Positions 11,501-38,485 of a stretch of DNA of 57,264 nucleotides are shown piece by piece. The notes beneath the pieces were generated by a model. It did not search any database. It saw only the letters and a list, made by a program, of their open reading frames with translations, and was not told the DNA's origin. The position numbers and the translations under genes are program-made. Position 1 is the first letter of the stretch, and each line of letters begins with the position of its first letter. Source of the stretch: Clostridia bacterium (GTDB taxonomy: Bacteria; Bacillota; Clostridia; Oscillospirales; CAG-382). The stretch is from NCBI GenBank assembly GCA_017466805.1, contig JAFTTN010000061.1, forward strand, positions 1 to 57,264, given 5' to 3'.

Positions 11501-11646
11501 TCGTGTTGGACGGTATATATTTTACATTTATCGGTCTGAGATTTGGAAAGCTTGTATCTATATTCAAAAGTATCGCGCCCGCTATTTTCAGCGTATCCCA
11601 TTATGCTTTTCGCAGACAGTCTGTAAATCTGATATTTAACTTGCAC
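8578..11646 (-). CDS. Single-chain double-psi-barrel RNA polymerase (cellular RdRP/YonO-like)
   Basis: This 1022-residue protein shows the landmarks of the two-barrel polymerase superfamily that includes eukaryotic RNA-silencing RdRPs, phage YonO and the large RNAP subunits. FQIR at 269-272 followed by K277-G278 matches the FQIR...KG block of RdRPs (first barrel). RNPHIAR at 539-545 and GGADYDGD with Asp591, Asp593 and Asp595 match the RNAP/RdRP catalytic barrel (compare RAPTLHR and NADFDGD of beta-prime). By analogy it would bind metal through the three Asp and polymerise nucleotides; template and product are unknown. The start is GTG with GAGGTGA ahead of it. It is intact, the largest gene of the element, and overlaps its partner gene. 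Confidence 0.87.
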   Translation of the reverse strand: MQVKYQIYRLSAKSIMGYAENSGRDTFEYRYKLSKSQTDKCKIYTVQHEQEDNALFFQIMCQLHGDDFQTPTDKKLITDLSSIICIVDFEGVFDRNSSSPKTLELQSKAKSMFDDAGIGLDLGAGYHRYYAFERSASMSRKSQLTFIRDDFYYPVRRRIMMDIELGDCQLSKLYAYNGLMLSSGERVDNIEIDKPHRVIVIDNPEYNERNVPIITVKDTTGEGNVRKYERVETVEDVTITAFDGEGLISKEYAKVIDKAYCGEHVHTSFQIRMPYVKGMLHKVDFKHFLSSAGVQTITDIYGNSHRIDDVDIILTKSMFKGYGWLKDCNMTWDDYWNAFRKYNHALYITNVSHVIPQEYTDLNYQFISTLAITDEEFRPKDLPDGWDHSPNDDERHWLTKRTEVEYYNLCCNEEYRLNYFLRVLNTKGYDKERRLYRLARILEKNPLFINESVYHDELKTRAEKIFEDYAVGTILIEGDNRFLSGDLIEFLYWLLDDDRKQKFTQRIFSKVAKKTKLEPFSFYAPGSKYNSGQVCTLLRNPHIARNEEVQLRVHTELKKMDALRSLYLHHLTDVVMIDPTILAAERLGGADYDGDMIRTVSDPLVNECVSRNYASADLNHRSNIPLLKIPSAEPQIRNANDNIARYETIRNTFSSRIGQISNAALDRSLIAYNENSSAEEREHRRKEVETLAILTGLEIDSGKSGVKPDLSEYLGSGRAERSVFLKYKYLQENKDVATPWYQPSNKKQMKELLNTTDWDSITSNVERMPYLANKLKDNTVPIAKKKIPDSELFSFAVQPDWKDTLDSGTLFWMEGLIADYNEALNRIRRSRVTINNRSRQNDVNRILYSMGKELIYDSDSLYSAFAGIDDEYIAIVREAIINEKWHLMEREERYDFVKRHFPNADFYRYYDLLCDFRHGGFRLLGDIICDIDDENKSEKRKELHKKEDREELTAMLNGYLNKPPAESFRDAVIRTCLALIEKRMKPSESIPYVVALGKRSFMWDVLCEYVEDTVLRKEENHA

Positions 11647-11669
11647 CTATATCACCTCGATTTGCTTTC

Positions 11670-11698
11670 AGTATATCACAAAATATAATAAAACGCAA
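11670..11698 (-). promoter_or_regulatory. Promoter of the polymerase operon
   Basis: On the minus strand TTGCGT (11693-11698), 17-bp spacer, TATACT (11670-11675), ending 24 bp before the GTG start. It is divergent from the excisionase-relaxase operon. Confidence 0.7.
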
Positions 11699-11707
11699 TA
11701 TGAATAC

Positions 11708-11733
11708 TGCCCCCACTTTTTAAGATGGGGGCA
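11708..11733. terminator. GC-rich inverted repeat between divergent operons
   Basis: TGCCCCCA and TGGGGGCA (11708-11715 with 11726-11733) enclose a 10-nt loop. It lies between the polymerase promoter and the leader peptide; it could be a terminator/insulator or an operator. Confidence 0.5.
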
Positions 11734-11757
11734 AAATTTATATTCAAGGAAGGAGTG

Positions 11758-11793
11758 ATGACGGTGCTCATTGCAGACAAAACTCCGCTGTAA
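11758..11793 (+). CDS. Leader peptide MTVLIADKTPL (candidate attenuator uORF)
   Basis: ATG at 11758 opens an 11-codon frame reading M-T-V-L-I-A-D-K-T-P-L, with the strong ribosome site AGGAAGGAG at 11747-11755. The last codons (CCG CTG TAA) are also the left arm of the hairpin at 11785-11808, so a ribosome finishing or pausing there must disrupt that stem. This is the geometry of translation- or termination-attenuation leaders. The gene is too short for ordinary gene callers. Its role upstream of the excisionase operon is inferred. Confidence 0.55.
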   Translation: MTVLIADKTPL

Positions 11794-11838
11794 ATTAGAG
11801 TACAGCGGTAGAAAAACAAAACGCAGACTCTGCGTTTT
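11785..11838 (+). promoter_or_regulatory. Tandem leader hairpins before the excisionase operon
   Basis: CCGCTGTA/TACAGCGG (11785-11792 with 11801-11808) is followed by AAAACGCAGA-C-TCTGCGTTTT (11818-11838). The first overlaps the end of the leader peptide; the second has terminator-like arms but only a short T-run. They sit 42 bp upstream of the excisionase start. Confidence 0.65.
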
Positions 11839-11880
11839 CAAATAAGAGAGTCAAATAAATTATAAAGGATTGATACAAAC

Positions 11881-12096
11881 ATGAAACATTCAGAAATCAA
11901 ATCGTATGACGAGCTACCGCTGTTTTTGAACGCAGACTTGGTAGCAAAAACACTTGGCGTGGCATCGTCCACCGCCTATGAACTTATGCACGAAAAGGAC
12001 TTCCCTGCGGTGAGAATCGGCAACCGATTTGTAGTACCCAAGGAAGAATTTCAGGCGTGGATAAAAAAGAAGATCGGAGGTAAATGCAATGAATAA
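11881..12096 (+). CDS. Excisionase-family HTH DNA-binding protein
   Basis: The 71 residues form a MerR/excisionase-type winged helix: LNADLVAKTLGVASSTAYEL is the HTH and FPAVRIGNRFVVPKEEF the wing, as in HTH_17 proteins. In an element with tyrosine recombinases it is best read as the recombination directionality factor or a regulator of mobility genes. Its stop overlaps the next gene by 8 bp. It is the first full gene of the rightward mobility operon, behind a leader peptide and two hairpins. Confidence 0.88.
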   Translation: MKHSEIKSYDELPLFLNADLVAKTLGVASSTAYELMHEKDFPAVRIGNRFVVPKEEFQAWIKKKIGGKCNE

Positions 12097-12463
12097 AAAT
12101 TTAATTTATTGGTACAAGGAAGAAGATGTGTTTGAAGCGTTGCGAGAACGTATCCTCACAAAAGAGGTGCAAGAACTTTTTGATAACACCGAAGAATACA
12201 GGATGTTGATACAGGCGTTTGCCGAACTCACCTACAGCGAAGAAATTATTGTGTTCGGTAAAATTTATTATCAAAATGATGTGCGCCGTATTCTTTGTGA
12301 TGAATTGGAATCAGGAACCGTGATAGATGCCTATGAACTTTTCAAAAACCAGTACCGTTCCAAAGGTGCAAAATTGTTAGCGTGGTTAATTTTGCGTGAG
12401 CATCTAACCGCAGAAGAATTGGCTGGACTTATGGTCGAGTATGATTTCGGGAGAGGTGCTTAA
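12089..12463 (+). CDS. Hypothetical protein of the mobility operon
   Basis: The 124 residues are acidic and mostly helical, with no motif I recognise (ends AEELAGLMVEYDFGRGA). The start overlaps the excisionase gene, with GGAGG just upstream. It abuts the HTH gene directly (stop at 12463, next ATG at 12464). It is a conserved-looking operon member; a regulatory or accessory role in element transfer is a guess. Confidence 0.65.
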   Translation: MNKNLIYWYKEEDVFEALRERILTKEVQELFDNTEEYRMLIQAFAELTYSEEIIVFGKIYYQNDVRRILCDELESGTVIDAYELFKNQYRSKGAKLLAWLILREHLTAEELAGLMVEYDFGRGA

Positions 12464-12928
12464 ATGATTTTCGGTTCACAGAAACGGGATCCGTGTAAAA
12501 ACTTTTATATGGTTCCGAATGAAATAATGCGCCTTGGTTTATCGGTTGGCGAAATCGCAGTATATAACTATCTTATTTATTGCGAAGATCACAACACCTA
12601 CCAATGTTATCCGAGCTACAGAAAAATGGGTGAGGCTTTGGGTCTCACCCGTAAAACTGTTATGAAATATGTACGAAGCCTTGAAGACAGGTGTCTTATC
12701 TCAACCGAGCCGACAACGGTAACGTTGAAATCCGGTAAAAAGCAAAATGGCAATTTGCTCTACACCATCCGTCCGATACAGGATGCTGTCGACCATTTTA
12801 ATGCAGAACAGCTTAGGAAAGCAGAGCGAGAAATGGCACGGCTGAATGTAATCCGCAAACTCGAAGAATACGACCGAAAACACAGTATTATAGACGGAAA
12901 TCGGTCGTCATTATTTGAAGCGGGTTAA
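12464..12928 (+). CDS. Winged-HTH replication/regulatory protein
   Basis: The 154 residues carry a helix-turn-helix of the HTH_36/RepA-N-like type: GLSVGEIAVYNYLIYCEDHN, then PSYRKMGEALGLTRKTVMKYVRSLEDRCLI. Such proteins occur in Firmicutes plasmids and mobilizable elements as putative replication initiators or regulators. The gene has no spacing from the previous one. A candidate oriT follows immediately. Whether it starts replication of the excised element or regulates transcription is open. Confidence 0.8.
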   Translation: MIFGSQKRDPCKNFYMVPNEIMRLGLSVGEIAVYNYLIYCEDHNTYQCYPSYRKMGEALGLTRKTVMKYVRSLEDRCLISTEPTTVTLKSGKKQNGNLLYTIRPIQDAVDHFNAEQLRKAEREMARLNVIRKLEEYDRKHSIIDGNRSSLFEAG

Positions 12929-13010
12929 AGTGCGCTATCACGCACGGCACCACATCGGACGGCAGAGCCGACCGTTTGGAGATTTTCAAAGGCGCCGTAA
13001 ACGCAAAATT
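12926..13010. other. Candidate origin of transfer
   Basis: The 110-bp gap before the relaxosome gene holds GTGCG-N6-CGCAC (12930-12945) directly followed by GGCACCAC, and a further GC-rich inverted stretch around 12957-12975. Inverted repeats next to relaxase genes are the usual mark of oriT. The nic site is not identified. Confidence 0.4.
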
Positions 13011-13038
13011 ATGCTATCTTAGCAAAAGGAGAAGAAAA

Positions 13039-13479
13039 ATGGATAAAAAGTACACTTTCACCGTCCGTATGGGCGAAAAGCTCAAAGAGGAAATTCGAGA
13101 AAACTTTGACGAAGCACACGTGCGCTCGCTCAATGCCTTCGTATTAAAGGCGATAGATTTTTATCTTGGATACCTCAGGCAAGGCAAAAATCTAAATTAT
13201 ATTTCGCCGATACTCGCATCAAGTATCAAGAGTGAAATTAAAAGTACCGAGCAAAATTTATCGGAAATTATTTTCAAAATGGCGGTGCAGCTTTCAATGC
13301 TAACGCAAGTGGTTGCAGATGACCATGAGTTTCAACCAGAATATCTTGAAGAACTTTACCGTTGGTGCGCCGAAAAGGTTGCCTCGACTAACGGTATTGT
13401 TTCACTTCAAGATATGCAGCAGAGAGAAAATGTTTATACCGACTACGATTATTTTAATAGCGGCGGAGGTGATTACTAA
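13039..13479 (+). CDS. MobC-like relaxosome accessory protein
   Basis: ATG at 13039 is chosen for its AAAAGGAGAAG site; the product has 146 residues. The amino end (YTFTVRMGEKLKEEIRENF) is a ribbon-helix-helix-like DNA-binding segment, followed by a helical region. This architecture and the position directly before a relaxase fit a MobC-type accessory protein that binds oriT. The stop overlaps the relaxase start (TAATG). Assignment rests on context and fold type rather than on a strong family motif. Confidence 0.72.
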   Translation: MDKKYTFTVRMGEKLKEEIRENFDEAHVRSLNAFVLKAIDFYLGYLRQGKNLNYISPILASSIKSEIKSTEQNLSEIIFKMAVQLSMLTQVVADDHEFQPEYLEELYRWCAEKVASTNGIVSLQDMQQRENVYTDYDYFNSGGGDY

Positions 13480-14810
13480 TGCCAAAAATTATATTCACAA
13501 GTCGGTATACCCGTAATCCGAAAGCATCGAATTCAGGAAAACTCTTACGGTATATGGCAACGCGCGAGAGCGTGGAAAAGGTGGCGGTCGGTCTCGACCG
13601 CTCACCATCAACAGTCCGTCAACAGCGTTTAATTAAAAATATTCTTGAAGCCTATCCCGAAACAAAAGACTATCTTGAATATGAAGATTATCTTAAAGAA
13701 CCGTGCAAATCTAACGCAACCGAATTTATAGATGCGGTGATTGATAGAAACATTGACAGGCTTGACGGTGTTAAAAATCTTGTGAAGTATTATGCAGAGC
13801 GCCCCGGTGTTGCGAAACTCGGCACACACGGTTTATTTTCACAGACCGATGACAAGATTGACCTTGATAAAGTTGCCGAAGAAGTTTCTAATCACAAGGG
13901 AATTATATGGACTCACGTTATCAGTCTTCGCCGTGAAGATGCCGAGCGACTTCGGTATAATAATCCGTCCCGATGGCGTGATTTGATTCGCAGTATCGTT
14001 GCTGAAATTGCCGATGCCCATAATATTGATTTGGAAAACCTCCGTTGGTATGCAGCGTTCCACAATAAAGACCATCATCCTCATGTGCATCTGATGGTCT
14101 ACTCTGCCGATGCCAAACAAGGTTGGATCACAAAGCGGTCTATTGATGATATGCGCAGTATGTTCGGTAACGAAATATTCCGCGGTGAGCAATACCGTCT
14201 TTTTGAAATGCAAACCAAACAGCGTGAGCTGGTTAAGGAAAAATTCAAGGAAAGGATAAAACACTTTGAAGAAAACGGTTACACCTTAACACCGCAGCTT
14301 GAATTTTTATTCTTTAATCTTGCCAAGCAATTAAAATCGGTAAAGGGTAAAAAAGTTTACGGATACCTGCCGAAAGATATTAAAGATACGGTAGACAGTA
14401 TCGTGCGTGAGCTTGCAAAGGATAAAGATATAGCTGACCTGTATCATAAGTGGAATGAAATTAACCGTGAAAAATTATCTCTCTACCACGAAAAGAAAAC
14501 ACCGGATATTCCGCTGGAAGACAACAAAGAATTCCGCAGTATTAAAAATATTATAGTCAAGGCGGCGGTGGAGTTTAATAACACACAGTACAGCGAAAAT
14601 TATACACCGCAGAATTATACTGCCTCTGCTTTCGGCAGAATTCTTTGTCAACTGATCCGGGCAATCAGCCAAAGCTATGACAACAGGGATAGAAAGTTAC
14701 GCTCTCAGGTTGACGGTAAACTCCGTTCCAAGATCGCGCAAAAGAAAGCGGCACTTGGTATTCGTCCCGAACAAAGCGACTATGAAAATTATTATGAGCA
14801 GAGCATGTAA
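13479..14810 (+). CDS. MobP-type relaxase
   Basis: The 443-residue protein contains the metal-binding HUH block HNKDHHPHVHLMVYS near residue 200 and an amino-terminal segment with Tyr residues (FTSRYTRNPKASNSGKLLRY) suited to DNA nicking. This arrangement matches the MobP3-like relaxases of Firmicutes mobilizable elements. It would nick oriT and pilot the single strand into a recipient through a helper conjugation system. No type IV secretion genes are present here, so the element is mobilizable rather than self-conjugative. It is intact and coupled to the accessory gene. Confidence 0.88.
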   Translation: MPKIIFTSRYTRNPKASNSGKLLRYMATRESVEKVAVGLDRSPSTVRQQRLIKNILEAYPETKDYLEYEDYLKEPCKSNATEFIDAVIDRNIDRLDGVKNLVKYYAERPGVAKLGTHGLFSQTDDKIDLDKVAEEVSNHKGIIWTHVISLRREDAERLRYNNPSRWRDLIRSIVAEIADAHNIDLENLRWYAAFHNKDHHPHVHLMVYSADAKQGWITKRSIDDMRSMFGNEIFRGEQYRLFEMQTKQRELVKEKFKERIKHFEENGYTLTPQLEFLFFNLAKQLKSVKGKKVYGYLPKDIKDTVDSIVRELAKDKDIADLYHKWNEINREKLSLYHEKKTPDIPLEDNKEFRSIKNIIVKAAVEFNNTQYSENYTPQNYTASAFGRILCQLIRAISQSYDNRDRKLRSQVDGKLRSKIAQKKAALGIRPEQSDYENYYEQSM

Positions 14811-14907
14811 AAAACTCGAACCTACGGTCAATATTGTCTGGATATTGAAAAGGTTATGTGGTATTGTGTTGTCGCAAAAAGAAAACTAAATGAAAGGAGT
14901 TGATAAT

Positions 14908-16077
14908 GTGGCAAAACGCAGACCTAACGGTGACGGAATGGTTAGAAAACTTAAAGGAAAATGGGAAGGCAGAATTATAGTCGGTCATAAGGATGACGGC
15001 TCTCCCATCTTCCGTTATGTGTACGGTAAAACACAGAAAGAACTAACCGAAAAGATGCACCGTAAATTAAATGAGTATGAAGGCGTGGAACTTACCGAGA
15101 ACAGCAAAATGACACTCGGCGAGTGGTTGGATGTGTGGCTTGAAAAGTATATGCGAAACACCATCCGTCCAAGCACCTTTGATAGTTACGAGCGTATGTG
15201 TGATGATTATATCAAGCCTAACCTTGGTAATAAAACCATCGCCTTTATTACCGCCAACGACATACAAAAAATGTATGTAAAGCTCAAAAAGGAAGGCAGA
15301 AAGAACTACCATCCCACATTCGGTAAAAGTCTCTCCGACTCGTCTATCGTCCGCATCCACAATATGCTTCACAAAGCGATGGACGATGCCGTAAAGGAAC
15401 ACCTTATACCGAAGAACCCAACGGCTGGTACAAATCCTCCGAAAAAGAAAAAGCCGGAGCTTCAGATCTTAAACGAAGAACAGCTCCAAAGATTTATGAA
15501 TGCCATAGAAAACGATATTATATGGCACGATATATTCTACACGGAAATGACAACGGGACTTCGCAGAGGTGAGCTGTGCGGTCTTAAATGGACAGACTTT
15601 GACGAAACCGAAGGTGTGCTTAAAATTAACCGCAGTATAACGCACGATAAGAAAGGCGGTTTCATTGAGGGTGAAACCAAAACAGGTCAAGGCAAGCGTT
15701 CTATACTCCTACCGCTTAGCACGGTAGAGATATTAAAAGAGCGTAAGCGCAAAAGCCGAAGCGAATGGATATTTGAACATCCTCTCGATCCGACAAGACC
15801 GATAGCGCCTTGCTCGGTATACAACAAAATGAAGGCTATCCTTAAAAGCGCAGACCTGCCGAGCATTCGCTTTCATGACCTACGGCACACCTTCGCCACT
15901 CACGCTCTCACAAGCGGAGTTGATGCCAAAACACTATCGGGAATCCTTGGTCATACCAATGCGAGCTTCACGCTTGACACCTATACTCACGTTACAACAG
16001 ATATGCAAAAAAGAGCATCCGACATTGTAGAAAACTTTGTTGAGGATATGTTCGGAAAGGGGTTGAATTTAATATGA
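14908..16077 (+). CDS. Tyrosine recombinase/integrase 1
   Basis: GTG at 14908 follows AAAGGAG with 8-nt spacing; an ATG six codons upstream overlaps that site and is less likely. The 389 residues include an AP2-like arm-binding domain (GKWEGRIIVGHKDDGSPIF), a core-binding SAM-like domain, and a catalytic domain with Arg in TTGLRRGELCGLKW, HDLRH, GH and the nucleophile Tyr in LDTYTHV. It overlaps the second integrase by 4 bp (ATGA). It would integrate and excise the element; the division of labour with integrase 2 is unknown. Confidence 0.92.
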   Translation: MAKRRPNGDGMVRKLKGKWEGRIIVGHKDDGSPIFRYVYGKTQKELTEKMHRKLNEYEGVELTENSKMTLGEWLDVWLEKYMRNTIRPSTFDSYERMCDDYIKPNLGNKTIAFITANDIQKMYVKLKKEGRKNYHPTFGKSLSDSSIVRIHNMLHKAMDDAVKEHLIPKNPTAGTNPPKKKKPELQILNEEQLQRFMNAIENDIIWHDIFYTEMTTGLRRGELCGLKWTDFDETEGVLKINRSITHDKKGGFIEGETKTGQGKRSILLPLSTVEILKERKRKSRSEWIFEHPLDPTRPIAPCSVYNKMKAILKSADLPSIRFHDLRHTFATHALTSGVDAKTLSGILGHTNASFTLDTYTHVTTDMQKRASDIVENFVEDMFGKGLNLI

Positions 16078-17519
16078 GTAAAAAGAGAAAGAAAGGTTCG
16101 GGTACGCTTCGCAAACGAGCAGACGGTCGTTGGGAAGCAAGAGTGGTTATCGGCTACGATGAAAAAGGTCTTCCCATCACCAAATGTGTCACCGCCCTCG
16201 AAAAGACAAAATGCCTTGAAAAGTTTGAAAAACTTAAAGAGGAAATAAATCTTATACAGCGTGATACCGTAAAATCGGATATGCCCTTCGGTGAGTGGCT
16301 TGACTTCTGGTACAGACATTATTGTCAGATGACCATACGGCAGTCAACTCAGGCAAGTTACGAAAACCGCATCTACAAGCATATTATCCCTCAAATCGGT
16401 AGCGTTAAATTAAACAAGCTCACGCAAAATGACCTGCAACAGTTCTATGCAAGCGCCAAGAAAGGCGGTCGGCTTCAATATGCCGAATGTTTAGGAGAAG
16501 GCTTATCCGACCGAATGATACGCTCAATACACGCTGTATGCAGACAAGCGCTTGAAAAGGCGGTAAGCGAATCGCTGATAACGGTAAACCCTGCAATCGG
16601 TTGTAAACTACCGCCAAAGAAATCCCGTGAGATGCAGGTGCTGACACCCGAAGAAATGCAACGCTTCCTCATACAAGCCAAGTACGAAGGCTACTTCGAA
16701 ATGCTACTCTTGGAACTTACAACAGGAATGCGTCGAGGTGAACTCTTAGCATTACAGTGGGATGACCTAAACTTCCAAACCGGCGAGCTACACATCTGCA
16801 GACAGGTATATCACGTCAAAGGAAGTATGCAGATCACCGAGCCTAAAACCAAAGGGTCGATAAGAACAATAATATTGCCGAAAGTGATATTAAATGTGTT
16901 GGCCGAATATAAAATGACGGTAAACTCAAGGTGGATATTCCCGTCGCCGATGATAGAGGATATGCCAAGAAATCCGCAGTCTGTGTATAAAAAGGTAAAG
17001 ACAATCCTACAGAGAGCCGGTTGCAAAAATATCCGCTTTCACGATCTACGGCACACCTTCGCTACAACGGCACTTGCCAATGGTATGGATGTTAAAACTT
17101 TGTCTTCGATCATAGGCCATGTATCATCCCAAACCACCCTTGATATATACCTGCACAGCACACTTGAAATGCAAAGACAGGCAGCAAGGAAAATTGACAG
17201 CGGTATCGCCCGAAACGACAGCGTTAACACCGAGGACGAGCAAACACCCGAACAAGACACAAACGAGCCGTGTAAGCCGAAATTTGAAGCCGTACAAGCC
17301 AAAATACGAAATCCCGGCACCGGCTGCTTGTATCAGGTCAGTGAAAACCTATGGGAAGGTAGTTACTTTCCCAAGCTTGCCGATGGCAAACGAAAGAAGT
17401 TCAATGTATATGCCAAAACGAGAGAGGAATGTGAAGTCCTCCTTGCAGAGATGATTCCAAAAGTTAAAGCTGAGATTGCAGAAGCTAAGGCAAAGCTGAA
17501 AGAACAGCAATCAGCGTAA
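16074..17519 (+). CDS. Tyrosine recombinase/integrase 2 with carboxyl-terminal extension
   Basis: The 481 residues repeat the layout of integrase 1: an AP2-like domain (GRWEARVVIGYDEKGLPI), core-binding domain, and catalytic Arg (TTGMRRGELL), HDLRH, GH and Tyr (LDIYLHS). After the catalytic domain there are about 110 extra residues. Within them NLWEGSYFPKLADGKRKKF looks like a second copy of the amino-terminal AP2-like arm-binding domain. Translation is coupled to integrase 1. Both recombinases seem catalytically intact. A perfect terminator follows. Confidence 0.92.
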   Translation: MSKKRKKGSGTLRKRADGRWEARVVIGYDEKGLPITKCVTALEKTKCLEKFEKLKEEINLIQRDTVKSDMPFGEWLDFWYRHYCQMTIRQSTQASYENRIYKHIIPQIGSVKLNKLTQNDLQQFYASAKKGGRLQYAECLGEGLSDRMIRSIHAVCRQALEKAVSESLITVNPAIGCKLPPKKSREMQVLTPEEMQRFLIQAKYEGYFEMLLLELTTGMRRGELLALQWDDLNFQTGELHICRQVYHVKGSMQITEPKTKGSIRTIILPKVILNVLAEYKMTVNSRWIFPSPMIEDMPRNPQSVYKKVKTILQRAGCKNIRFHDLRHTFATTALANGMDVKTLSSIIGHVSSQTTLDIYLHSTLEMQRQAARKIDSGIARNDSVNTEDEQTPEQDTNEPCKPKFEAVQAKIRNPGTGCLYQVSENLWEGSYFPKLADGKRKKFNVYAKTREECEVLLAEMIPKVKAEIAEAKAKLKEQQSA

Positions 17520-30282: not shown

Positions 30283-30906
30283 TTATTTATTACTGTGGTG
30301 TAAAAACGGAAGCAGGCAAAAGGCGATTCTTTCGTGCCTTTCGCGGCTTGCCAAAAGCTTTGCGGTAACCGTTCCTGTTATAAAAAGATATCCTGCATAT
30401 ATTGCGGCATCGTGCAGAAAAATCGGCATAAGCAACGCCGCGAGAGAAAAGCAAACAAGCGTCCGCAAAAAGTTTGGGGTTATTTTTATTATTATCGAAA
30501 AAACGATAAAGGTTATGCCGAGCACGGTGACGCTAACCAAATTCGGCGCAAGCCCCATCAGACTGCCGAAGCTTACGCTTATACCCTTGCCGCCCTTGAA
30601 CTTATGAAAAATCGGGAAGCAATGGCCGACAACCGCCGCGGCAAGCACCAAGGCAATGCCCCAAGCGTTCGTTGCAAAAAAGGAGTGGTAGATAAACACC
30701 GGCAAAAAACCCTTTGCCATATCGCAAAACGCGGTTGCACAGCCGCAGGCTATTCCGCCCTTCGAAAAAGCGTTGTAGGCACCGGGGTTTTGGTCGTCGC
30801 TTTGTGTTACAATATCCTTTTTTGCAAACAGATATCCGAAATATTTGGCGAAAAGCAATCCGCCGCTTAAATAACTTATAACCGTAAAAATCAGTGTGGA
30901 TAACAC
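30283..30906 (-). CDS. plsY: Glycerol-3-phosphate acyltransferase PlsY
   Basis: The 207-residue membrane protein shows PlsY motifs: SGGLLFAKYFGYLFAKKDI (motif 1 region with Ser/Gly), ALVLAAAVVGHCFPIFHKFKGGKGISVSFG (motif 2, His and GGKG) and the third motif near the end is weakly visible. It transfers acyl from acyl-phosphate to glycerol 3-phosphate in phospholipid synthesis. It sits between the TIR operon (24 bp upstream) and fprA with no visible terminator, so it may be read from the TIR promoter. The amino end ISYLSGG deviates slightly from the usual IP-SGY. Confidence 0.92.
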   Translation of the reverse strand: MLSTLIFTVISYLSGGLLFAKYFGYLFAKKDIVTQSDDQNPGAYNAFSKGGIACGCATAFCDMAKGFLPVFIYHSFFATNAWGIALVLAAAVVGHCFPIFHKFKGGKGISVSFGSLMGLAPNLVSVTVLGITFIVFSIIIKITPNFLRTLVCFSLAALLMPIFLHDAAIYAGYLFITGTVTAKLLASRERHERIAFCLLPFLHHSNK

Positions 30907-30930: not shown

Positions 30931-31734
30931 TTAAATATTGCTTCTCCAGCTTTCGTCCTTTTCGATGCGCGATTGGCGCGAGCGCTTTTCGCATTCGATA
31001 CGGTGCTTACTTCCGCGGGCGAAGAGGTTTATTTTGGTATCCTCACCGAAGGATTGCTGAAGAATATCCTCGACAGTGCCGTTCGAAAGGAAGCTGCAGG
31101 AGAAGATGTCGATATTCGCAACGCGCTCTGCTATAGAATAGTGGAACGCAATATGGCTTTGCGCCACCACAAGCACGCCCGATATATATTCGGGGTTTTG
31201 CAGCTTATCGTAGATAACGTAGGGGCGGGAGATGGCTTGCATATTAATACGCGGCGCGACGTTATCGAGCCATTTGAATATGCTTTCCATATTCGCATCG
31301 ATGTTTTCGGCGGTTATCATATAGTGAGGGCCGAAATCGTTGCCGGTATCGATATTACCGCTTACCCCTTCGAAAATGCGGCGGTCAACCACGTTCGTGC
31401 TTATCGTGCCGGCATAAAGCTGATGGCGGATAAGACGGGTTACCTCCTCCTCGCTAAAGAATTGGTCGGTAAGAATATCGACGAAATAGCAAGAGCGGTA
31501 GGGGAATGTATGTATTGTTATATGCGAGCCGTTGGCGCAGATACAGAACGCGCTTACGCCGACGTCCTCCGCATCCTTGCAGTAATAGTAAGGAACGAGG
31601 AAGGGGGGCATAATAGGCTTCATTTCCAAGCTGGTTGCAAGCTGTACCAAAAGGTCGTTTACAACCATAATGCTGTTGGACTGTTCGACAAAGCAGCCGT
31701 ACGCGTCCAGCATATAATGTCTGTTTGCAAGCAT
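30931..31734 (-). CDS. Tandem SpeD-like (S-adenosylmethionine decarboxylase fold) protein
   Basis: The 267 residues contain two copies of the SpeD signature. Copy 1: Ser70-His71 in CANGSHITIHTFPY with His75, but Asp90 where Cys is expected. Copy 2: Ser193-His194 in VVAQSHIAFHYS with His198 and Cys213 in DIFSCSF. The spacing Ser, +5 His, +20 Cys equals that of bacterial SpeD (pyruvoyl Ser, catalytic His and Cys). SpeD enzymes make decarboxylated AdoMet for spermidine; some relatives decarboxylate arginine or ornithine. Here only copy 2 could mature, and the Glu before the cleavage Ser is Gln. It is the last gene of the TIR operon, 9 bp after its neighbour. Confidence 0.8.
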   Translation of the reverse strand: MLANRHYMLDAYGCFVEQSNSIMVVNDLLVQLATSLEMKPIMPPFLVPYYYCKDAEDVGVSAFCICANGSHITIHTFPYRSCYFVDILTDQFFSEEEVTRLIRHQLYAGTISTNVVDRRIFEGVSGNIDTGNDFGPHYMITAENIDANMESIFKWLDNVAPRINMQAISRPYVIYDKLQNPEYISGVLVVAQSHIAFHYSIAERVANIDIFSCSFLSNGTVEDILQQSFGEDTKINLFARGSKHRIECEKRSRQSRIEKDESWRSNI

Positions 31735-31743
31735 TCTTTGCTC

Positions 31744-33999
31744 CTAATCCACGAAAATTTCGTTAAAGTCCTTGAAGTTTATAAGTACGGGGTCTATCCA
31801 CCATGCGTTGCTGGTACGCAAAATATTGGGCAGGCAATAGAAAACGTTGCTTAAATCGTAGGAAAATTCCGAAAGCACTTTAATTTCCTTTTTTTCGGGA
31901 GCGGCGTCGCCGTCGAAATCGAAGTTAAGGGTAAGCGTTACGGTTTTAAAGCCCTCGTAGTTTTCGTTGCCGCTGTTGCAGGTTGCGGTGTAGGGATATA
32001 TCGCACGGGTGGGGTTATCGCCGCTTAGCTCAAAAGTGCCGTTGCGCAAATATTCAAGCACGCGCAAAGCAAAGGAAATCCATTCGTTAACGTTGCTCTC
32101 GTCGATTTTTTTCAAACCCTCGACGTAGCCGAGCGCGTGTTTTTTAAATTCATGCGTGTTCAAAAGCTCGTATTTGCCGATAGCCGAATAAAGCGAACGG
32201 CGCGCGCTTTCGGAGGAATTGGCACCGGAGCCGCATTTTTCACACAGCTCGATAAAGCGCTGCATAAGCGCAAGCATATCGTTGTAATCGCTTGCGTTAA
32301 AGCTCTTCAACGCCTCGGCTTCGCTCCTTGCGGCATCCAAAAAGCTTTCGTGCAGCGATTTTTGGTCCTTGGCTATATCGCTTTCCGAAAGGCAGGCGAT
32401 GTTCGATTTCGCATCGAATTCGGCTTTGGTTTCGCCGTATTTAAGCAATCCGGTATAGAAGCAGATTATGTGGCGGAAGGTTTCGCTTAAAATAATACAA
32501 ACGTATTTACAGCGCTGCTCGGGAGTCATAGTCGTCTTCATCTTTTCGAGCAGAGCCATATTATCGTAAATATTGCCCGCGCATATCGATTTTTCGACCG
32601 TTTCTTCCTCGTGAACCGCAGAAAGCGACGCGATTATAAGCATAGCCTGCGCCCTTGCCTTGAGCCTGCGGTTGTTTGCGTTGGGAACCTTGCCGAAGCC
32701 GCTCGCTTCGCCGAAAATAAGCTTTTCCTTTATAATCGTATCGACCTCCTGCATAAGCTCGCGCTTGTTGCGTCCGCGAATGAACATTTTGGGGTTATCG
32801 ATACGCTTGCAAAGGTTGCGGGCGATATCTATAAAGTTCTTTTCGAATTTTAAAAACAGTGTTTCGAGCACGCTTGTCGGGCTGTTTTCGATAAGCAGCA
32901 TTACGATAATGCTGTCCCAATCTAATTTTTGGGTTTCTATCTGCGAAGCGTCTGCGTTGCCGAAAAGCTCGTCGTTTTCGCGCTTGCGAAAGGCTTCGAA
33001 CAGCGCGGATTTCGAGCCGATGTTTATATCTATCGCATCGGATATTGCCAGCGCCAGATTTTTAATATATTTGTAATTAATCGCGTGGACCTGATGTATC
33101 AGGTTGTTTTTTTTTGAATCGCTCCCGCTGTTGTCCCAGGGAATAAGCGAAATTTCGGAATAAACCTCCTCGGGCACGCGGAGTATTTTGTTTTCCGCCG
33201 AGTCGCCTTCGTCCTCGGTTACGGTAAAGCTTACCGTTTGCGAGTTCTTTTCGCAGATATAGCGGAGCTCTAATTTATCGCCGCTTTCGCTGTCGTTTCT
33301 TTCTACGCTGAACAGCGAGAACATATCGAGATATTCTTCCTCGTTGAAATAAAGCAGATAGTTAACCGGAATATATTGGTAGTCCTCTGCTTCGAATGGG
33401 TTTTTCGAAACGAAGGTGAAATTGCCCTCTTCGTCCTGAACGAGATCGTAGGATTTAAGAAATTCGATATTTTGAAGCAGGTTATAGAACATAACCGAAA
33501 GCTCCAGCGTATCCATATTAAAGCGTGCGGGCGCAACTCGCCATTCGGCGATAAGCTTAAAGTATTTTATAAGGCTGAAATCGTGCGAGGAGAAGGGCGA
33601 AAGCCTTTTGAAAACATCGTAAAGCTCGCTGTCCTCGTCCTGAAGCATTTCGAACTGAATATCGGTAAGCACGAACTGAACCAGCTCGGGCGTGACGGGG
33701 TATTGCGAATATGCCTTTTTCAAGCTGTTTATAATACGCAGCGAGCTTTGCGACGATGCGTTTTCGCTTATCGATTCGCCGCTGTTCATATCGCACTTAA
33801 GGCTTCCGTATGCAAAAATAAACGAAAGCGTAAGTATATTATTTATAAAAACAACGTAGGAGGAGGATTTGCAGTAACGCTTAACGTTGGTGCCGCCGAG
33901 AATAAAGCTTTTCATATTATCGCAAACCTGCGTGTTGAAAAACTCCAATATGCTCGCGCGGGTTGCTTCCTCCAACGCTTTTTTGGAACGTTCGTCCAT
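31744..33999 (-). CDS. Large unknown protein of the TIR-ParA-SpeD operon
   Basis: I do not recognise this 751-residue protein. It has no signal peptide or clear membrane segment, is acidic and Ser-rich, and looks predominantly helical (for example NGTFELSGDNPTRAIYPYTA is a rare beta/turn stretch near residue 660). The carboxyl 90 residues contain a beta-rich piece (FKTVTLTLNFDFDGDAAPEK). It lies 18 bp after the ParA-like gene and 9 bp before the SpeD-like gene, so the stoichiometry is probably linked. A scaffold, sensor or effector role within the module is possible; none is shown. GAGG precedes the ATG. Confidence 0.75.
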   Translation of the reverse strand: MDERSKKALEEATRASILEFFNTQVCDNMKSFILGGTNVKRYCKSSSYVVFINNILTLSFIFAYGSLKCDMNSGESISENASSQSSLRIINSLKKAYSQYPVTPELVQFVLTDIQFEMLQDEDSELYDVFKRLSPFSSHDFSLIKYFKLIAEWRVAPARFNMDTLELSVMFYNLLQNIEFLKSYDLVQDEEGNFTFVSKNPFEAEDYQYIPVNYLLYFNEEEYLDMFSLFSVERNDSESGDKLELRYICEKNSQTVSFTVTEDEGDSAENKILRVPEEVYSEISLIPWDNSGSDSKKNNLIHQVHAINYKYIKNLALAISDAIDINIGSKSALFEAFRKRENDELFGNADASQIETQKLDWDSIIVMLLIENSPTSVLETLFLKFEKNFIDIARNLCKRIDNPKMFIRGRNKRELMQEVDTIIKEKLIFGEASGFGKVPNANNRRLKARAQAMLIIASLSAVHEEETVEKSICAGNIYDNMALLEKMKTTMTPEQRCKYVCIILSETFRHIICFYTGLLKYGETKAEFDAKSNIACLSESDIAKDQKSLHESFLDAARSEAEALKSFNASDYNDMLALMQRFIELCEKCGSGANSSESARRSLYSAIGKYELLNTHEFKKHALGYVEGLKKIDESNVNEWISFALRVLEYLRNGTFELSGDNPTRAIYPYTATCNSGNENYEGFKTVTLTLNFDFDGDAAPEKKEIKVLSEFSYDLSNVFYCLPNILRTSNAWWIDPVLINFKDFNEIFVD

Positions 34000-34017
34000 A
34001 ATGACGCCTCCTGAATT

Positions 34018-34950
34018 TTAGTCGGTTTCGACCTCGTCGATAATTCTGGCAAGCTTTTTGTATCTTTCGAGCGCTTCCTTTTCGTCGTCCATAAGCTTAT
34101 CCTTTTCGATCGAGTAAAGCTGGTCCTCCTGCCACATAAAGCGGTCTACCGCGGGAATACCGAATTCTTCGCGGTCGAGCATATCGAGAATATATTTGTG
34201 GCGAAGGTCGCTTCCGCCGAAGGAGGATTCGAAGTTGCCGCTGATTTTATCGATAGCGTAGCCGGGGTAGGTAACGCCGTTAATAGTCGTGCTGTATTTG
34301 GGAATAACGTTGGGCACAAATATAACGGTTTTTTCCTCGCCGATAGATTTATCGCCGTCCTCAACCGCGGTAAAGAAGCGGCGGGTACCGTTTACAAACT
34401 GAATGGTGGGACGCATACAGCATACCACAACGTTCGCCGCATAGTTGGAAATGTTTGCGGTTGCGGTATTACCTACCGAGGAGTCGAGCACGATTGCGGG
34501 GATATCGAAAAAGCGGTCGCAAACGTTTATAAAGCTTTCGAGCTTTTCGTAAAAGGAGTTGTTTGCATCCGAATAGTTGGATTTGGAATCCTTATCGATG
34601 TTTTTGTTATCCATTGCGGGAAGAAGCAAAATAGCATCGTTAACCGGGTATCCGTAGGCGTTGCCGACGGGGATAAGCTGGCTCAAAAAGGGGTGCTCGG
34701 AAATCGAGGGGTATTTTTTGGTTTCGATACCGTTGTGAAGCAGATATTGCAGACAGTTTGTATCGGTAACCTTGTCCTCCGCGCGCAGCAGATAGGACAT
34801 ACCGCAGCTGTCTACGTCGGTATCGATAACTATCATCGGGCTTTCGGCGGTAGGTCTTATATGGTTTGCCGCAAGGAGAGGGATAACGTTGTATGCGAGC
34901 GTGCTTCGTCCTGCACCGCCCTTATAGGAAAAGAAGGAAATAACTTTCAT
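34018..34950 (-). CDS. ParA/MinD-like P-loop ATPase
   Basis: The 310 residues open with MKVISFFSYKGGAGRST, the deviant Walker A of ParA/MinD/SIMIBI ATPases (signature Lys10). MIVIDTDVDSCGMSYLL and IPAIVLDSSVGNTATANISNYAANVV correspond to the switch and Walker B regions. It is not part of a ParAB partition pair: no ParB and no parS-like array are nearby. Sandwiched between two large unknown proteins in the TIR operon, it probably organises or times assembly of that system through ATP-driven dimerisation. The ribosome site is AAGGAGA. Confidence 0.88.
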   Translation of the reverse strand: MKVISFFSYKGGAGRSTLAYNVIPLLAANHIRPTAESPMIVIDTDVDSCGMSYLLRAEDKVTDTNCLQYLLHNGIETKKYPSISEHPFLSQLIPVGNAYGYPVNDAILLLPAMDNKNIDKDSKSNYSDANNSFYEKLESFINVCDRFFDIPAIVLDSSVGNTATANISNYAANVVVCCMRPTIQFVNGTRRFFTAVEDGDKSIGEEKTVIFVPNVIPKYSTTINGVTYPGYAIDKISGNFESSFGGSDLRHKYILDMLDREEFGIPAVDRFMWQEDQLYSIEKDKLMDDEKEALERYKKLARIIDEVETD

Positions 34951-34976
34951 TTTTGTCTATTCTCCTTATAACAGTA

Positions 34977-37217
34977 TTATTCAAACAGCGAGCTTTCGTG
35001 ATCGCTCGAATTCTTTATGCGTGCGATATAGTTGCTTACCAAAAGCTGAATATCCTTGCGGATGTAGCCCTGGAAGCGCTCGAACGCCTTTTTGTTTTCT
35101 TCGAACGATGCCTTGGAGGACTTGGATGCCGAATATACCTTTTCGCTTACAAGCGACATAAAGAACGCACCCATTGCCGCTTGGAACGCCTTGTTCGATT
35201 CATCAAGCTCCTCGGCTCCCATCGTGGCGGCGTTGACGTTTGCCGCAACCGATGCGATATAAGCGGTTATAAGCTCGGGGAACATATTTCCGACCTCGCG
35301 CTTGACTATATCGATAACCGCGCTTTCGACAGGTCTTTCGACGTTATCGAGCGCTTGCTGAAGCTCGGCGTTTTTAAGCTGAAGCTCCTTGATTTCGTTG
35401 TTCTTATCGTCGATAAGTCTTTCGCGCTTGCCGATTTCGCCCTCGGGAAGCTCGTCCTGACGCTTCTGCTCGGCAAGTATCGCTTCGCGCTGTGCCTTGT
35501 TCTTGTTATAGTTTTCTATATATTCGCTTTCGTATCTTTCGTAGTAGGAATAGAATTCTCCGAGTGCCGAAATAAAGTAGTAGTTACTGCAGCTGAAGAA
35601 GCCGTCCTTTTCCCAAATCCACTTTACCGAGCCGTTCTTCTCGTAGCGGTTTTCGAGTATATAGCCGAGATACTTGCGCATATTGTGCTGGGGATATTTT
35701 ACCAGGTATTCGCTTATCGCATTGTTGGTACGGATAAGCAGCGGCATAAGCGAGAATACGCGCATTCTAAGCTTACGAAGCTCTTTTATAATTACCTTGT
35801 GGCGAGTGAATTTTTCGTTAAAGCCGACAAGGAACTGGTCTACGATATATTCCTTGCCGTCGTTTTTAAGCTTTTCGTAGGTGCGGAACGCCTTTTGCAC
35901 CGCGAGCTGACAGGAGTCGAGCATGTCGTTGTATTCGCGCAGCGCGGATTCGAGTTCCTCTTCGTTTTTGGCAAATTCGCGGCGGGTATCGATATCCTCG
36001 TCAACGCCGGCGTCAAGCATAATGTTTATCATATAAACCGTGTTGAAGAGTGCGTCCGAGGTGGTCGCCATCGAAATATCGTTTTCGGTAAGGGTGGTGT
36101 TTATATCAAGGTCGTTATAGAAGAATGCTTCGGCAAGTCTGTCCTTCGAAAGACGCCAAATTTCGTGTGCGACCTTTTTGCAGTTATCCTCGAGCTTGCC
36201 GTATTCACCCGCGATTTCGGCAACGCCGCCGTTGATTTCGATAAAGCGAAGTCTTAATTCGTTATAGGTATCGTACTTCGAGGCTCTCTTCGCCTCGGGG
36301 TCGATATTTTCCTCGACGTCGTTTGCGGTAGCGGCGTTTATTTTTTCGAATTCGGCAATATGCTCGTTGAATTTTTCCTCCAACTCCTCGTAGCTTTCCT
36401 TTAACGCTTCAAAGCTTTCGGAGGTGTTCTGTGCCGAGGTGCTGTATTTATCGAACTTGCGCTTTTCCTTTAAGTAGGTAAGATATTCCTCGAAGGTCTT
36501 GAATATTTCAACAAGACATTCGCAAACCGTAAAGGTGTAGTACAGCGAGGGCTCCTCGCAGCCGTTGGTGAAGTTCCAGCCGATTTCGAGCTTTTTCGAT
36601 TTGCCGAGCTCGCTTTCGCCTTTAATAAAGCTTTCGTTAAGATAGCGCATACCGTAGGAAATGGCGGCAACCAATCTTTCCTGACGTCTGCATTTTTCAC
36701 GAATGCTTGCGTGGTATTTAAGAATCTGCAAAAAGCAGGATAAAACCCAAGTAATTGCTTCTACGTTTGCCGTTTCAACAGTGAAGTGAGGGGTAACGTA
36801 GGGGGTTGCGTCGAAAAGATATTTGTTGGGGTCGTCGGTTTCGATTCTTGCCAGAATATCGTCCATAACGATGTCCATTACCTCACGAATGGTAAGGTTG
36901 CCGTTTTTGATTATTTCGGCATCGTCGAAATCGAGCTTAAAGGAAGATGCAAGCAGCATAAGCGCTTGGAGCGAATGACACTGCGAAAGCAAGCCGACCT
37001 TGTGGGTATCGTCCATATAAAACCCGATATCGCCCTTGCTTGCGTCGTTGTTAAAGCGGGAATAAAGCTCTTCAAATATTTTTTTGCCTATTTTGGTTTT
37101 CGATCTGTACTGATAAAAAACCTGATTGCCTTCGTTTCTCGAGGAATAGTCGACTATATCGGCAAGGTTTCCGTATCTTGCGCGTCGGTCCAATAATCTG
37201 TTGGTTGCTTCTGCCAT
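34977..37217 (-). CDS. Large coiled-coil protein of the TIR-ParA-SpeD operon
   Basis: The 746 residues match nothing I can name. The first 240 residues are helical and contain the stretch GWNFTNGCEEPSLYYTFTV near 213, which loosely recalls alpha/alpha-toroid (terpene-cyclase-like) repeats. Residues about 255-355 and 575-650 are strongly coiled-coil (for example EEKFNEHIAEFEKINA; NNEIKELQLKNAELQQAL). Cytoplasmic, no signal peptide. It is second in the operon, 18 bp after the TIR gene, and the coils suggest a structural or oligomerising component. The function is unknown. Confidence 0.75.
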   Translation of the reverse strand: MAEATNRLLDRRARYGNLADIVDYSSRNEGNQVFYQYRSKTKIGKKIFEELYSRFNNDASKGDIGFYMDDTHKVGLLSQCHSLQALMLLASSFKLDFDDAEIIKNGNLTIREVMDIVMDDILARIETDDPNKYLFDATPYVTPHFTVETANVEAITWVLSCFLQILKYHASIREKCRRQERLVAAISYGMRYLNESFIKGESELGKSKKLEIGWNFTNGCEEPSLYYTFTVCECLVEIFKTFEEYLTYLKEKRKFDKYSTSAQNTSESFEALKESYEELEEKFNEHIAEFEKINAATANDVEENIDPEAKRASKYDTYNELRLRFIEINGGVAEIAGEYGKLEDNCKKVAHEIWRLSKDRLAEAFFYNDLDINTTLTENDISMATTSDALFNTVYMINIMLDAGVDEDIDTRREFAKNEEELESALREYNDMLDSCQLAVQKAFRTYEKLKNDGKEYIVDQFLVGFNEKFTRHKVIIKELRKLRMRVFSLMPLLIRTNNAISEYLVKYPQHNMRKYLGYILENRYEKNGSVKWIWEKDGFFSCSNYYFISALGEFYSYYERYESEYIENYNKNKAQREAILAEQKRQDELPEGEIGKRERLIDDKNNEIKELQLKNAELQQALDNVERPVESAVIDIVKREVGNMFPELITAYIASVAANVNAATMGAEELDESNKAFQAAMGAFFMSLVSEKVYSASKSSKASFEENKKAFERFQGYIRKDIQLLVSNYIARIKNSSDHESSLFE

Positions 37218-37235
37218 TTTTTATATCCTCCGAAT

Positions 37236-38396
37236 TTAATTGTTTTTAAGCTTTTTAAGGTCGTCTGCGTGTATTTCTATTACCGGACGTACGCCCGATT
37301 TTGAATTTCGGGAATTATAGCCGCTTTTGTAAACCGTACCGTTTTTGCGTATTACCTTTTGCAATGCGCCCATTGCCATATCGGCTATCCACCAGTGCGA
37401 TTCGCTGTCCTCGGGGAAGGAAAGCAGCTCCTCGATGCTCGCGCTCGATTTCTTTTGGTCCTCGATCGCCTTTATATCCTCGCAGGAGAGCAGGCGTATT
37501 TTGCGTATTGCACTACGCTCCTCCTCGTTAAATGCAAGCGGCAAAAGGCTTTGCTCAAGCCAGGCGTTCAAATCCTTGCCGCCGCAGCGCGTGTCGACCG
37601 AATATTCCGAAATCAGCACGAAAATATCGTTTTCGCTGTAAAGCGCACGCCATATAATCGGCTTTGTCGAATAGCCCTTGCCGTCGATAACCATATAAGC
37701 TTCGCCGTGCTCGGTAAAGGCTTGGTTGGCTTGCAGACGGTATGGGGGAATATTGCTTTCCGGCTTATCTCTGCATATACCGAAGGTGAGCGTTAGGCTT
37801 TCCTCCTCGACAAGCGTTTCGAGCTTTTTCATTTGCAAATAATCGGTATCAATAACGCTTTGCAGCTTTTCGTTTATGCTCGAAAACAGCTTTTCGGCGG
37901 CTTCCTCGGCGTTGGAGGAATTAACGAATATAACCCTGTCGTTAAAAAGCTGTGTGATAACCGAAAGCCTTTCGTACGGGAACTGCTGCGAAAGCTTCAA
38001 CGCATCGCAATCGAGCGTGTCGAACACCTTTTTAAGCAAAAGCAGGTTCGAATCGCCGTCCTTGTTGGCGGGGAAGGTATAAAAGCTTCCGCCGCGGCTT
38101 TTTTCGGCGGCAATGCGCTCGAGCGTCCAAAGCCTTTCGTTGTGGACCGCCTCTGCCTTGAACGCTTCGGGGCTGTTGAAAAAGATAACGCCCTTGCAGT
38201 TTTTGTTTTTTATTAACGATTTCGCTTTCTCGGTCCAATCGTCACCGCCTTGAAGGTTAACGTCGTACCAAAAGCGAACACCCTTTTCGTAAAGGATCGA
38301 AAGAATCGCCTCGACCGATTCGGCATCGGTATGCTTGTAGCTTATAAAAACAAAATCGCTTTTTTCGATTTCTTCGTTCGTATAATGCCCGATCAT
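37236..38396 (-). CDS. TIR-domain protein with DUF6273-like sensor/lectin domain
   Basis: The 386 residues begin with a TIR domain: DFVFISYKHTDAESVEAIL (14-32), RFWYDVNLQGGDDW (41-54), and an alpha-C helix with Glu87 in AEAVHNERLW as candidate NADase glutamate. After a linker, residues about 240-380 resemble DUF6273 (IIWRALYSENDIFVLISEY; ITWL-type WLEQSLLPLAFNEEE; a final GVRPVIEI), a domain of unknown binding function common in Clostridia. TIR domains in bacteria cleave NAD or make signals in anti-phage defence. It is the first gene after a strong promoter; site AAGGAG. Confidence 0.85.
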   Translation of the reverse strand: MIGHYTNEEIEKSDFVFISYKHTDAESVEAILSILYEKGVRFWYDVNLQGGDDWTEKAKSLIKNKNCKGVIFFNSPEAFKAEAVHNERLWTLERIAAEKSRGGSFYTFPANKDGDSNLLLLKKVFDTLDCDALKLSQQFPYERLSVITQLFNDRVIFVNSSNAEEAAEKLFSSINEKLQSVIDTDYLQMKKLETLVEEESLTLTFGICRDKPESNIPPYRLQANQAFTEHGEAYMVIDGKGYSTKPIIWRALYSENDIFVLISEYSVDTRCGGKDLNAWLEQSLLPLAFNEEERSAIRKIRLLSCEDIKAIEDQKKSSASIEELLSFPEDSESHWWIADMAMGALQKVIRKNGTVYKSGYNSRNSKSGVRPVIEIHADDLKKLKNN

Positions 38397-38456: not shown

Positions 38457-38485
38457 ATTATACAATATACGACCTTTTTAGTCAA
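38457..38485 (-). promoter_or_regulatory. Strong promoter of the TIR operon
   Basis: Minus strand TTGACT (38480-38485), 17-bp spacer, TATAAT (38457-38462), with a 55-nt AT-rich leader to the ribosome site. It is the only clear promoter found for the minus-strand genes down to fprA. Confidence 0.85.

What the first reader, a model, noticed from the sequence alone, without database searches (positions are those of the whole stretch)
30931..38396. Five-gene TIR / ParA-like / tandem-SpeD operon with two giant unknown proteins
Seen: one consensus promoter and five tightly spaced genes combining a TIR protein, a ParA/MinD ATPase, an AdoMet-decarboxylase-fold protein and two unrecognised 750-residue proteins. 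Known: TIR domains serve NAD-cleaving immune systems. I know no named system with this set. Inference: a conflict or stress-sensing system linking nucleotide/NAD signals with polyamine-type ligands.
Basis: partly seen in the sequence, partly recalled or inferred. Interest (0 to 1): 0.92.

Follow-up and report, generated by a model that had tools for sequence, protein, structure and literature searches.

The report
Mobile five-gene TIR and decarboxylase-like operon
A few scattered Clostridia-type bacteria share a set of five genes that stay together, one a probable NAD-cleaving immune-type enzyme and another a repurposed decarboxylase, which looks like an undescribed defence system with an unusual chemical partner.

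Summary
The five-gene operon is real. All nine loci found with a relative of the 751-aa protein carry the same five genes in the same order and orientation, gaps -7 to +34 bp. It is rare: 2 of 295 genomes of the order, 1 of 63 of the family, own genome counted. The five genes' divergences agree with each other (r 0.85-0.97) but poorly with RpoB (r 0.18-0.39, seven genomes), which suggests transfer as a unit. One of seven congener loci examined has the flanking genes adjacent without it. TIR Glu87 and the ATPase K10 and R15 are invariant in 9 of 9. The SpeD's C-terminal half keeps the Ser-His-Cys triad in 9 of 9 but not the Pro I take to mark true AdoMet decarboxylases; its N-terminal half has no Cys. 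It is the only SpeD detected in nine genomes; no clear spermidine synthase was found. The two ~750-aa proteins match no family over a cut-off. Most likely a TIR conflict (probably anti-phage) system with an ATPase switch and a repurposed pyruvoyl enzyme. Defence is inferred; no defence-island context was seen.

The parts
38457..38485 (-). sigma-70-type promoter-like site TTGACT-17-TATAAT before the operon
   Evidence: 11 of 12 matches, best in the region; 61 bp before the TIR start
37236..38396 (-). TIR protein: TIR domain (aa 16-93) plus C-terminal region weakly resembling DUF6273; Glu87 invariant
   Evidence: TIR_2 in 8 of 8 members; DUF6273 in 3 of 8, best E 0.0063; E87 in 9 of 9
34977..37217 (-). 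G2: 746-aa protein, nearly all helix in the model, long helices on the C-terminal side, no family
   Evidence: AlphaFold2 pLDDT 64.1, pTM 0.61; its profile found only the own genome among 391 class genomes
34018..34950 (-). ParA/MinD-like ATPase with KGGAGR[ST]T: deviant Walker A whose second Lys is Arg
   Evidence: NF047398 in 9 of 9 at E <= 0.01; PADLOC candidate PDC-M28B in 9 of 9
31744..33999 (-). G4: 751-aa protein, mostly helical with beta regions at about 184-273 and 670-722, conserved INYKYIKN stretch, no family
   Evidence: AlphaFold2 pLDDT 68.4, pTM 0.45
30931..31734 (-). tandem SpeD (two AdoMet_dc domains): N-terminal half without the catalytic Cys, C-terminal half with S193/H198/C213

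Best explanation
A horizontally mobile, five-component TIR conflict system, most likely anti-phage. Shown here: the five genes form one conserved unit; TIR, ATPase and SpeD keep motifs expected for activity; no ordinary spermidine pathway was found around the SpeD. Inferred: G2 and G4 form a sensing scaffold; the KGG.GR ATPase acts as a nucleotide-dependent switch on it; on infection or damage the scaffold releases or clusters the TIR protein, whose TIR domain cleaves NAD+ (depletion, or an ADP-ribose-type signal) and stops the cell. The SpeD, one dead and one kept half, makes its own pyruvoyl cofactor in the C-terminal half and acts on a small molecule that bears an alpha-amino acid, and so sets the threshold, feeds or ends the signal. 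Which molecule is unknown.
For: Co-conservation and short gaps or overlaps in 9 of 9 loci. The five divergence patterns agree with each other, poorly with RpoB; SpeD is more alike than RpoB between some hosts (75% against 60%, 77% against 58%, 71% against 62%). No match in 62 of 63 family genomes, 23 of 23 other congeners among them. Such a patchy, transferred pattern is usual for defence modules (recalled). Flanking genes adjacent without the set in one congener. TIR E87, S19, Y20, W43, D45, G51, W54 invariant in 9 of 9; ATPase K10, G11, G12, G14, R15, D43, D45, D47, D156 invariant in 9 of 9. SpeD S193/H198/C213 in 9 of 9, at the spacing of S63/H68/C83 of the T. maritima AdoMetDC (alignment; roles from PMC10407285 section 7). 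Only SpeD detected in 9 of 9 genomes; no clear spermidine synthase.
Against: No experiment. No defence-island context. No relative of G4 or of the tandem SpeD operon in viral contigs or plasmids. The ATPase of the window scores under the NF047398 cut-off. Fold comparison of G2 and G4 could not be run, so their scaffold role is a guess from helical models of modest confidence. RpoB comparison has only seven genomes and low power (463 of 5000 permutations reach the G4 value), and one pair goes the other way (window-L015: SpeD 64%, RpoB 69%); a binning error in a MAG would also break congruence. Absences rest on incomplete MAGs (an rpoB-family match in only 7 of 9).
Confidence: 0.5

Rival explanations
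1. A TIR signalling module for stress, growth control or cell-cell competition rather than phage defence: the same parts, but a metabolic trigger and perhaps a reversible output.
For: Solitary operon among neighbours that read mostly as housekeeping; no viral-contig or plasmid relatives; a metabolic-enzyme homologue, SpeD, is the best conserved of the five (59% mean identity).
Against: Patchy distribution with signs of transfer; catalytic-type TIR residues kept in 9 of 9.
Confidence: 0.25
2. A variant of the main reading in which the SpeD is a ligand-binding sensor, not a working enzyme: it may self-process, but its job is to bind an amino acid or polyamine and gate the complex. (Overlaps with the main reading; not exclusive.)
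For: The N-terminal half has no Cys in 9 of 9 and no Ser in 3 of 9; the places aligned with W70, P71 and E72 of the AdoMet enzyme are S/D, I/V/T and A/K/E/Q.
Against: All three processing and catalytic residues of the C-terminal half are kept in 9 of 9, which a pure sensor would hardly need; the nearest tandem relatives lie in polyamine operons, where an enzyme is expected.
Confidence: 0.3
3. A polyamine or amino-acid decarboxylation operon with a TIR passenger: the SpeD simply supplies agmatine, putrescine or decarboxylated AdoMet to the cell.
For: The nearest tandem SpeDs found (33-35% identical) lie beside spermidine synthase, a single-domain SpeD and, in L050, an arginase-family gene. In the window's own genome a 291-aa ORF has a marginal, partial spermidine-synthase match (counted over the cut-off of 22.9 with its neighbours; 21.7 bits over 63 of 186 positions).
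Against: No other SpeD detected in 9 of 9 genomes; no clear spermidine synthase, the second weak hit (G120) being an RNA-methyltransferase-type protein (Cons_hypoth95 177.5 bits); Orn/Lys/Arg decarboxylase-type genes (PF01276) are present in 8 of 9, so the SpeD is not obviously needed for that; the other four genes have no metabolic reading.
Confidence: 0.06
4. Chance neighbours: five unrelated genes in a row.
For: Nothing beyond the lack of a named system.
Against: Same order in 9 of 9 loci with different flanks and matched divergence.
Confidence: 0.01

Closest known systems
Thoeris and other TIR-NADase defence systems (e.g. SpbK)
   Same: A TIR protein with the conserved Glu as the likely NAD-cleaving part; accessory genes.
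   Different: No ThsA-type SIR2, TM-macro or caspase-like partner found; instead two unknown ~750-aa proteins, a ParA-like ATPase and a SpeD. Basis for Thoeris and SpbK: passages of PMC12847820.
NTP-dependent conflict systems of Kaur et al. 2020 (eLife, PMC7159879)
   Same: TIR and other domains coupled to NTPases; MinD/ParA-like domains occur among their effector domains.
   Different: Their MinD/ParA-like domains are predicted inactive; here the signature Lys is kept. The text has 'AdoMet' 0 times and 'decarboxylase' 3 times, the one passage shown being about lysine decarboxylase. I saw passages only.
SpeD-SpeDC fusion decarboxylases (PMC10407285)
   Same: Two SpeD domains in one chain of about 270-320 aa, one of which may be degraded.
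   Different: In the degraded fusions described there the C-terminal half is the degraded one; here it is the N-terminal half, and the gene lies outside a polyamine operon (sections 6 and 7 read; elsewhere passages).
PADLOC candidate PDC-M28B
   Same: The ATPase of 9 of 9 members matches its model PDLC04559 at E <= 0.01; in the window over residues 3-194.
   Different: An unproven candidate; the window's other four proteins do not match it.

Membership tests
TIR-NADase family | TIR domain with conserved catalytic Glu | tested here: met
   TIR_2 in 8 of 8 members; E87 in 9 of 9, in the Glu column of three of four other own-genome TIRs that could be aligned, the fourth ambiguous. The PDB matches stop at residue 68 and do not test E87
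TIR-NADase family | NAD+ cleavage | not testable with these tools
   needs an assay
Thoeris | TIR gene with a ThsA effector (SIR2-SLOG, TM-macro or caspase-like) | tested here: not met
   no such domain in the five proteins; flanking genes read by eye, and 10 of them scanned with PADLOC
ParA/MinD deviant Walker A ATPases | KGGxGK[ST] with signature Lys (recalled motif) | tested here: inconclusive
   first Lys kept, second Lys is Arg in 9 of 9; NF047398 and ParA_partition NF041546 in 9 of 9 at E <= 0.01, but the window member is under both cut-offs
AdoMet decarboxylase (SpeD, class 1b) | Ser-His-Cys processing and catalytic triad | tested here: met
   C-terminal half S193/H198/C213 in 9 of 9; N-terminal half lacks the Cys in 9 of 9
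AdoMet decarboxylase (SpeD, class 1b) | Pro that tells bona fide AdoMetDC from ADC | tested here: inconclusive
   if that Pro is P71 of T. maritima (my reading; the figure is not held), the C-terminal half has I/V/T there in 9 of 9; the N-terminal half keeps a Pro in 9 of 9 but no Cys
AdoMet decarboxylase (SpeD, class 1b) | partner spermidine synthase in the genome | tested here: not met
   7 of 9 no match; G120 hit is an RNA-methyltransferase-type protein; own-genome hit marginal and partial, without the tetramerisation domain. MAGs are incomplete
SpeDC ornithine decarboxylases | four diagnostic residues Gln, Thr, Phe, Tyr | tested here: inconclusive
   their positions are in a figure not held; Q192 and Y199 are invariant beside the triad but cannot be placed
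defence-island genes | neighbourhood enriched in defence genes | tested here: not met
   PADLOC: 8 of 10 chosen flanking proteins no match; 2 matched (TmtA/REase_II models and mad8), which I read as an HtpG-type chaperone and a kinase-type enzyme; a second TIR gene 3 kb away in L011

The most novel reading that the evidence does not exclude
The SpeD works on the TIR product. AdoMet is an amino acid joined to adenosine, and some bacterial TIRs make an amino acid joined to ADP-ribose (His-ADPR; passages of PMC12847820). A SpeD with a kept pyruvoyl triad and a changed pocket, locked in one operon with a TIR, could decarboxylate an amino-acid-ADPR conjugate, to mature, tune or switch off the alarm: an enzyme that edits a TIR signal by decarboxylation, a kind I know no example of.
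Probability: 0.1. Interest if true: 0.95.

Novelty: new variant of a known kind. Interest (0 to 1): 0.77.

Why it matters
TIR proteins are shared by bacterial, plant and animal immunity, and what controls and edits their NAD-derived signals is an open question. A compact mobile operon that ties a TIR to a self-processing pyruvoyl-type enzyme, an unusual ATPase and two unrecognised large protein families offers a testable control chemistry, and suggests a metabolic enzyme fold recruited out of polyamine synthesis. Nine diverged sequence sets are at hand to design point mutants and search profiles.

Tried and rejected
Rejected: chance neighbours (9 of 9 co-conserved); AdoMet decarboxylase for spermidine (no clear synthase); the phylum hit in G410 as a degenerate copy, because its frame and neighbours read as an ABC-transporter set and no other operon gene is there; a phage or plasmid carrier (searches found no relative; the three phage records, 32-33% identical, match SpeD sequence alone in a stretch of about 340 bases).

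Resolved late: of the two weak spermidine-synthase hits, the G120 one is an RNA-methyltransferase-type protein and the own-genome one stays marginal.

Opened: PMC10407285 (sections 6 and 7, else passages), PMC7159879, PMC9092222 and PMC12847820 (passages). This covers open PMC text only. My by-eye idea that G2 holds an alpha/alpha-toroid fits a helical model but is untested.

Full report
What is there. Five minus-strand genes fill 38396-30931 behind one good promoter-like site (38485-38457). In order of transcription: a TIR protein (386 aa), G2 (746 aa), a ParA/MinD-like ATPase (310 aa), G4 (751 aa) and a tandem SpeD (267 aa). Gaps are 18, 26, 18 and 9 bp. A glycerol-3-phosphate acyltransferase gene (30906-30283) follows 24 bp after the SpeD.

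Is the set real? A search with G4 over 295 genomes of the order found the window genome and one more; one pattern-led scan of the genome collection found seven more loci. All nine loci carry all five genes, same order, same strand, gaps -7 to +34 bp, every frame open. Identities to the window are about 26-41% (TIR), 27-53% (G2), 38-64% (ATPase), 28-56% (G4) and 51-78% (SpeD). The G2 profile finds only the own genome among 391 class genomes. The tandem SpeD does exist elsewhere (below).

Distribution and transfer. The G4 profile finds 1 of 63 genomes of the family, the own one, with 23 of 23 other congeners negative, and 2 of 398 genomes of the phylum sample: the own one and a false hit. Titles of the seven named loci are Clostridia-type MAGs; four name roe deer cecum, sheep colon (two) or yak colon. 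Distance matrices of the five proteins agree with each other (r 0.85-0.97; at most 2 of 5000 permutations as high). For the seven genomes with an RpoB sequence they agree poorly with RpoB (r 0.18-0.39; 463 to 1289 of 5000 permutations as high; two genomes without an RpoB hit left out; RpoB pieces are partial, 815 shared columns). SpeD is more alike than RpoB in several pairs (window-L012 75% against 60%; L011-L012 77% against 58%; L016-L017 71% against 62%) but not in all (window-L015 64% against 69%). I read this as transfer of the whole unit; seven genomes give little power, and misbinned contigs could mimic it.

Empty site. Of 16 other congeners with a galT-type match I fetched seven loci. 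One (L076) has fprA, galT and mntP adjacent, where the window holds plsY and the five genes between fprA and galT; the other six have other neighbours and say nothing. Flanking genes of the operon differ between loci and read by eye mostly as housekeeping; of ten scanned with PADLOC, eight had no match and two matched models that I read as general ATPase and kinase similarity.

TIR and ATPase. Glu87 is invariant in 9 of 9, as are S19, Y20, W43, D45, G51 and W54. It falls in the Glu column of three of four other TIRs of the same genome that could be aligned, the fourth being ambiguous; three further own-genome loci gave no match to the profile and were dropped. Nearest solved chains by profile are bacterial TIR domains, one named an NAD+ hydrolase, at E 4e-4 to 3e-3 over residues 17-68 only. 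The C-terminal part weakly resembles DUF6273 (3 of 8 members, best E 0.0063). PADLOC matches are domain-level: SAVED5--SAVED_TIR E 2.6e-8 over residues 5-92. The ATPase has K10, G11, G12, G14, R15, D43, D45, D47 and D156 in 9 of 9; NF047398, NF041546 and PDC-M28B are each found in 9 of 9 at E <= 0.01, the NCBIfam ones under their cut-offs for the window member.

G2 and G4. No family over a cut-off in the window members; member-by-member Pfam scans gave scattered hits for G2 and one of E 0.17 for G4; no PDB relative by sequence. Hydropathy gives no clear membrane segment in four of the five; G4 has one borderline stretch near residue 49 (19-residue mean 1.71), a helix in its model, so membrane contact is not excluded. 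AlphaFold2 from eight sequences gives a nearly all-helical G2 (pLDDT 64.1, pTM 0.61) and a mostly helical G4 with two beta regions (pLDDT 68.4, pTM 0.45). These are modest models; fold comparison could not be run.

The SpeD. Pfam sees two AdoMet_dc stretches. Alignment with solved AdoMetDCs puts S193, H198 and C213 of the C-terminal half on the Ser, His and Cys that PMC10407285 section 7 names S63, H68 and C83 of T. maritima and calls essential for self-processing; all three are in 9 of 9. The places aligned with W70, P71 and E72 are S/D, I/V/T and A/K/E/Q. The same section says a Pro tells AdoMetDC from ADC; I take it to be P71, but the figure is not held. The N-terminal half has D or N where the Cys would be in 9 of 9, and Gly for Ser in 3 of 9. 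Degraded SpeD fusions described in section 6 have the damage in the C-terminal half; this is the reverse.

Where the SpeD came from. Of 28 of 391 class genomes with a SpeD-profile match, two besides the own one have a full-length tandem. Both have the same layout, are 33-35% identical, and lie in polyamine operons, beside spermidine synthase, a single-domain SpeD and, in L050, an arginase-family gene. The operon SpeD was perhaps recruited from such a gene. In all nine operon genomes it is the only SpeD detected. Spermidine synthase: no match in 7 of 9; the G120 hit is an RNA-methyltransferase-type protein; the own-genome hit is a 291-aa ORF with a partial match of 21.7 bits (cut-off 22.9; one search counted it over with its neighbours), against 200.8 and 204.2 bits for the true ones in L050 and L051. 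Orn/Lys/Arg decarboxylase-type genes (PF01276) are present in 8 of 9, and also in both polyamine-operon genomes, which weakens any guess that those tandem SpeDs replace them. MAG gaps limit the absences: an rpoB-family match was found in only 7 of 9.

How it most likely works. I place it among TIR conflict systems: a sensing scaffold (G2, G4) under a nucleotide switch (ATPase) holds a TIR enzyme, and a pyruvoyl enzyme (SpeD) handles a small molecule that tunes it. Conservation, motifs and the lack of a visible spermidine pathway are shown; transfer is well suggested; trigger, NAD cleavage, complex and substrate are inferred. The boldest reading is that the SpeD edits an amino-acid-ADPR product of the TIR, by analogy of AdoMet with the His-ADPR signal described in passages of PMC12847820.

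Against known systems. No ThsA-type partner was found, so it is not filed as Thoeris; nor is it a polyamine operon. The listings showed no paper on it. The NTP-dependent conflict systems of PMC7159879 (passages only) are the nearest published idea: they pair effectors with NTPases and include MinD/ParA-like domains, but those are predicted inactive.

Noticed in passing
window 30283-30906: A plsY-type acyltransferase gene (G3P_acyltransf) follows the SpeD by 24 bp and is missing together with the operon between fprA and galT in L076; by eye it is not beside the operon in the other loci.
   Followed up: partly
window 7713-17519: Reads by eye like an integrated mobile element: a 1022-aa protein, a relaxase-like gene and two tandem integrase-like genes, about 13 kb from the operon. 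No family search was made.
   Followed up: no
L050 3582-4382 and L051 8231-9031: Tandem SpeDs with a degraded N-terminal half and an intact C-terminal triad inside spermidine operons that also hold a single-domain SpeD; their activity is not known to me and may be arginine or ornithine decarboxylation.
   Followed up: partly
own genome, eight TIR_2 places, e.g. L008: The genome has eight TIR matches, the operon's included; the one on contig C72 (L008) lies beside a long run of similar short repeats that read by eye like MORN repeats.
   Followed up: no
L011 1152-2429: A second TIR gene lies about 3 kb from the operon on the other strand.
   Followed up: no
L016 1-603: The end of an integrase-like gene lies about 5 kb from the operon (by eye).
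   Followed up: no
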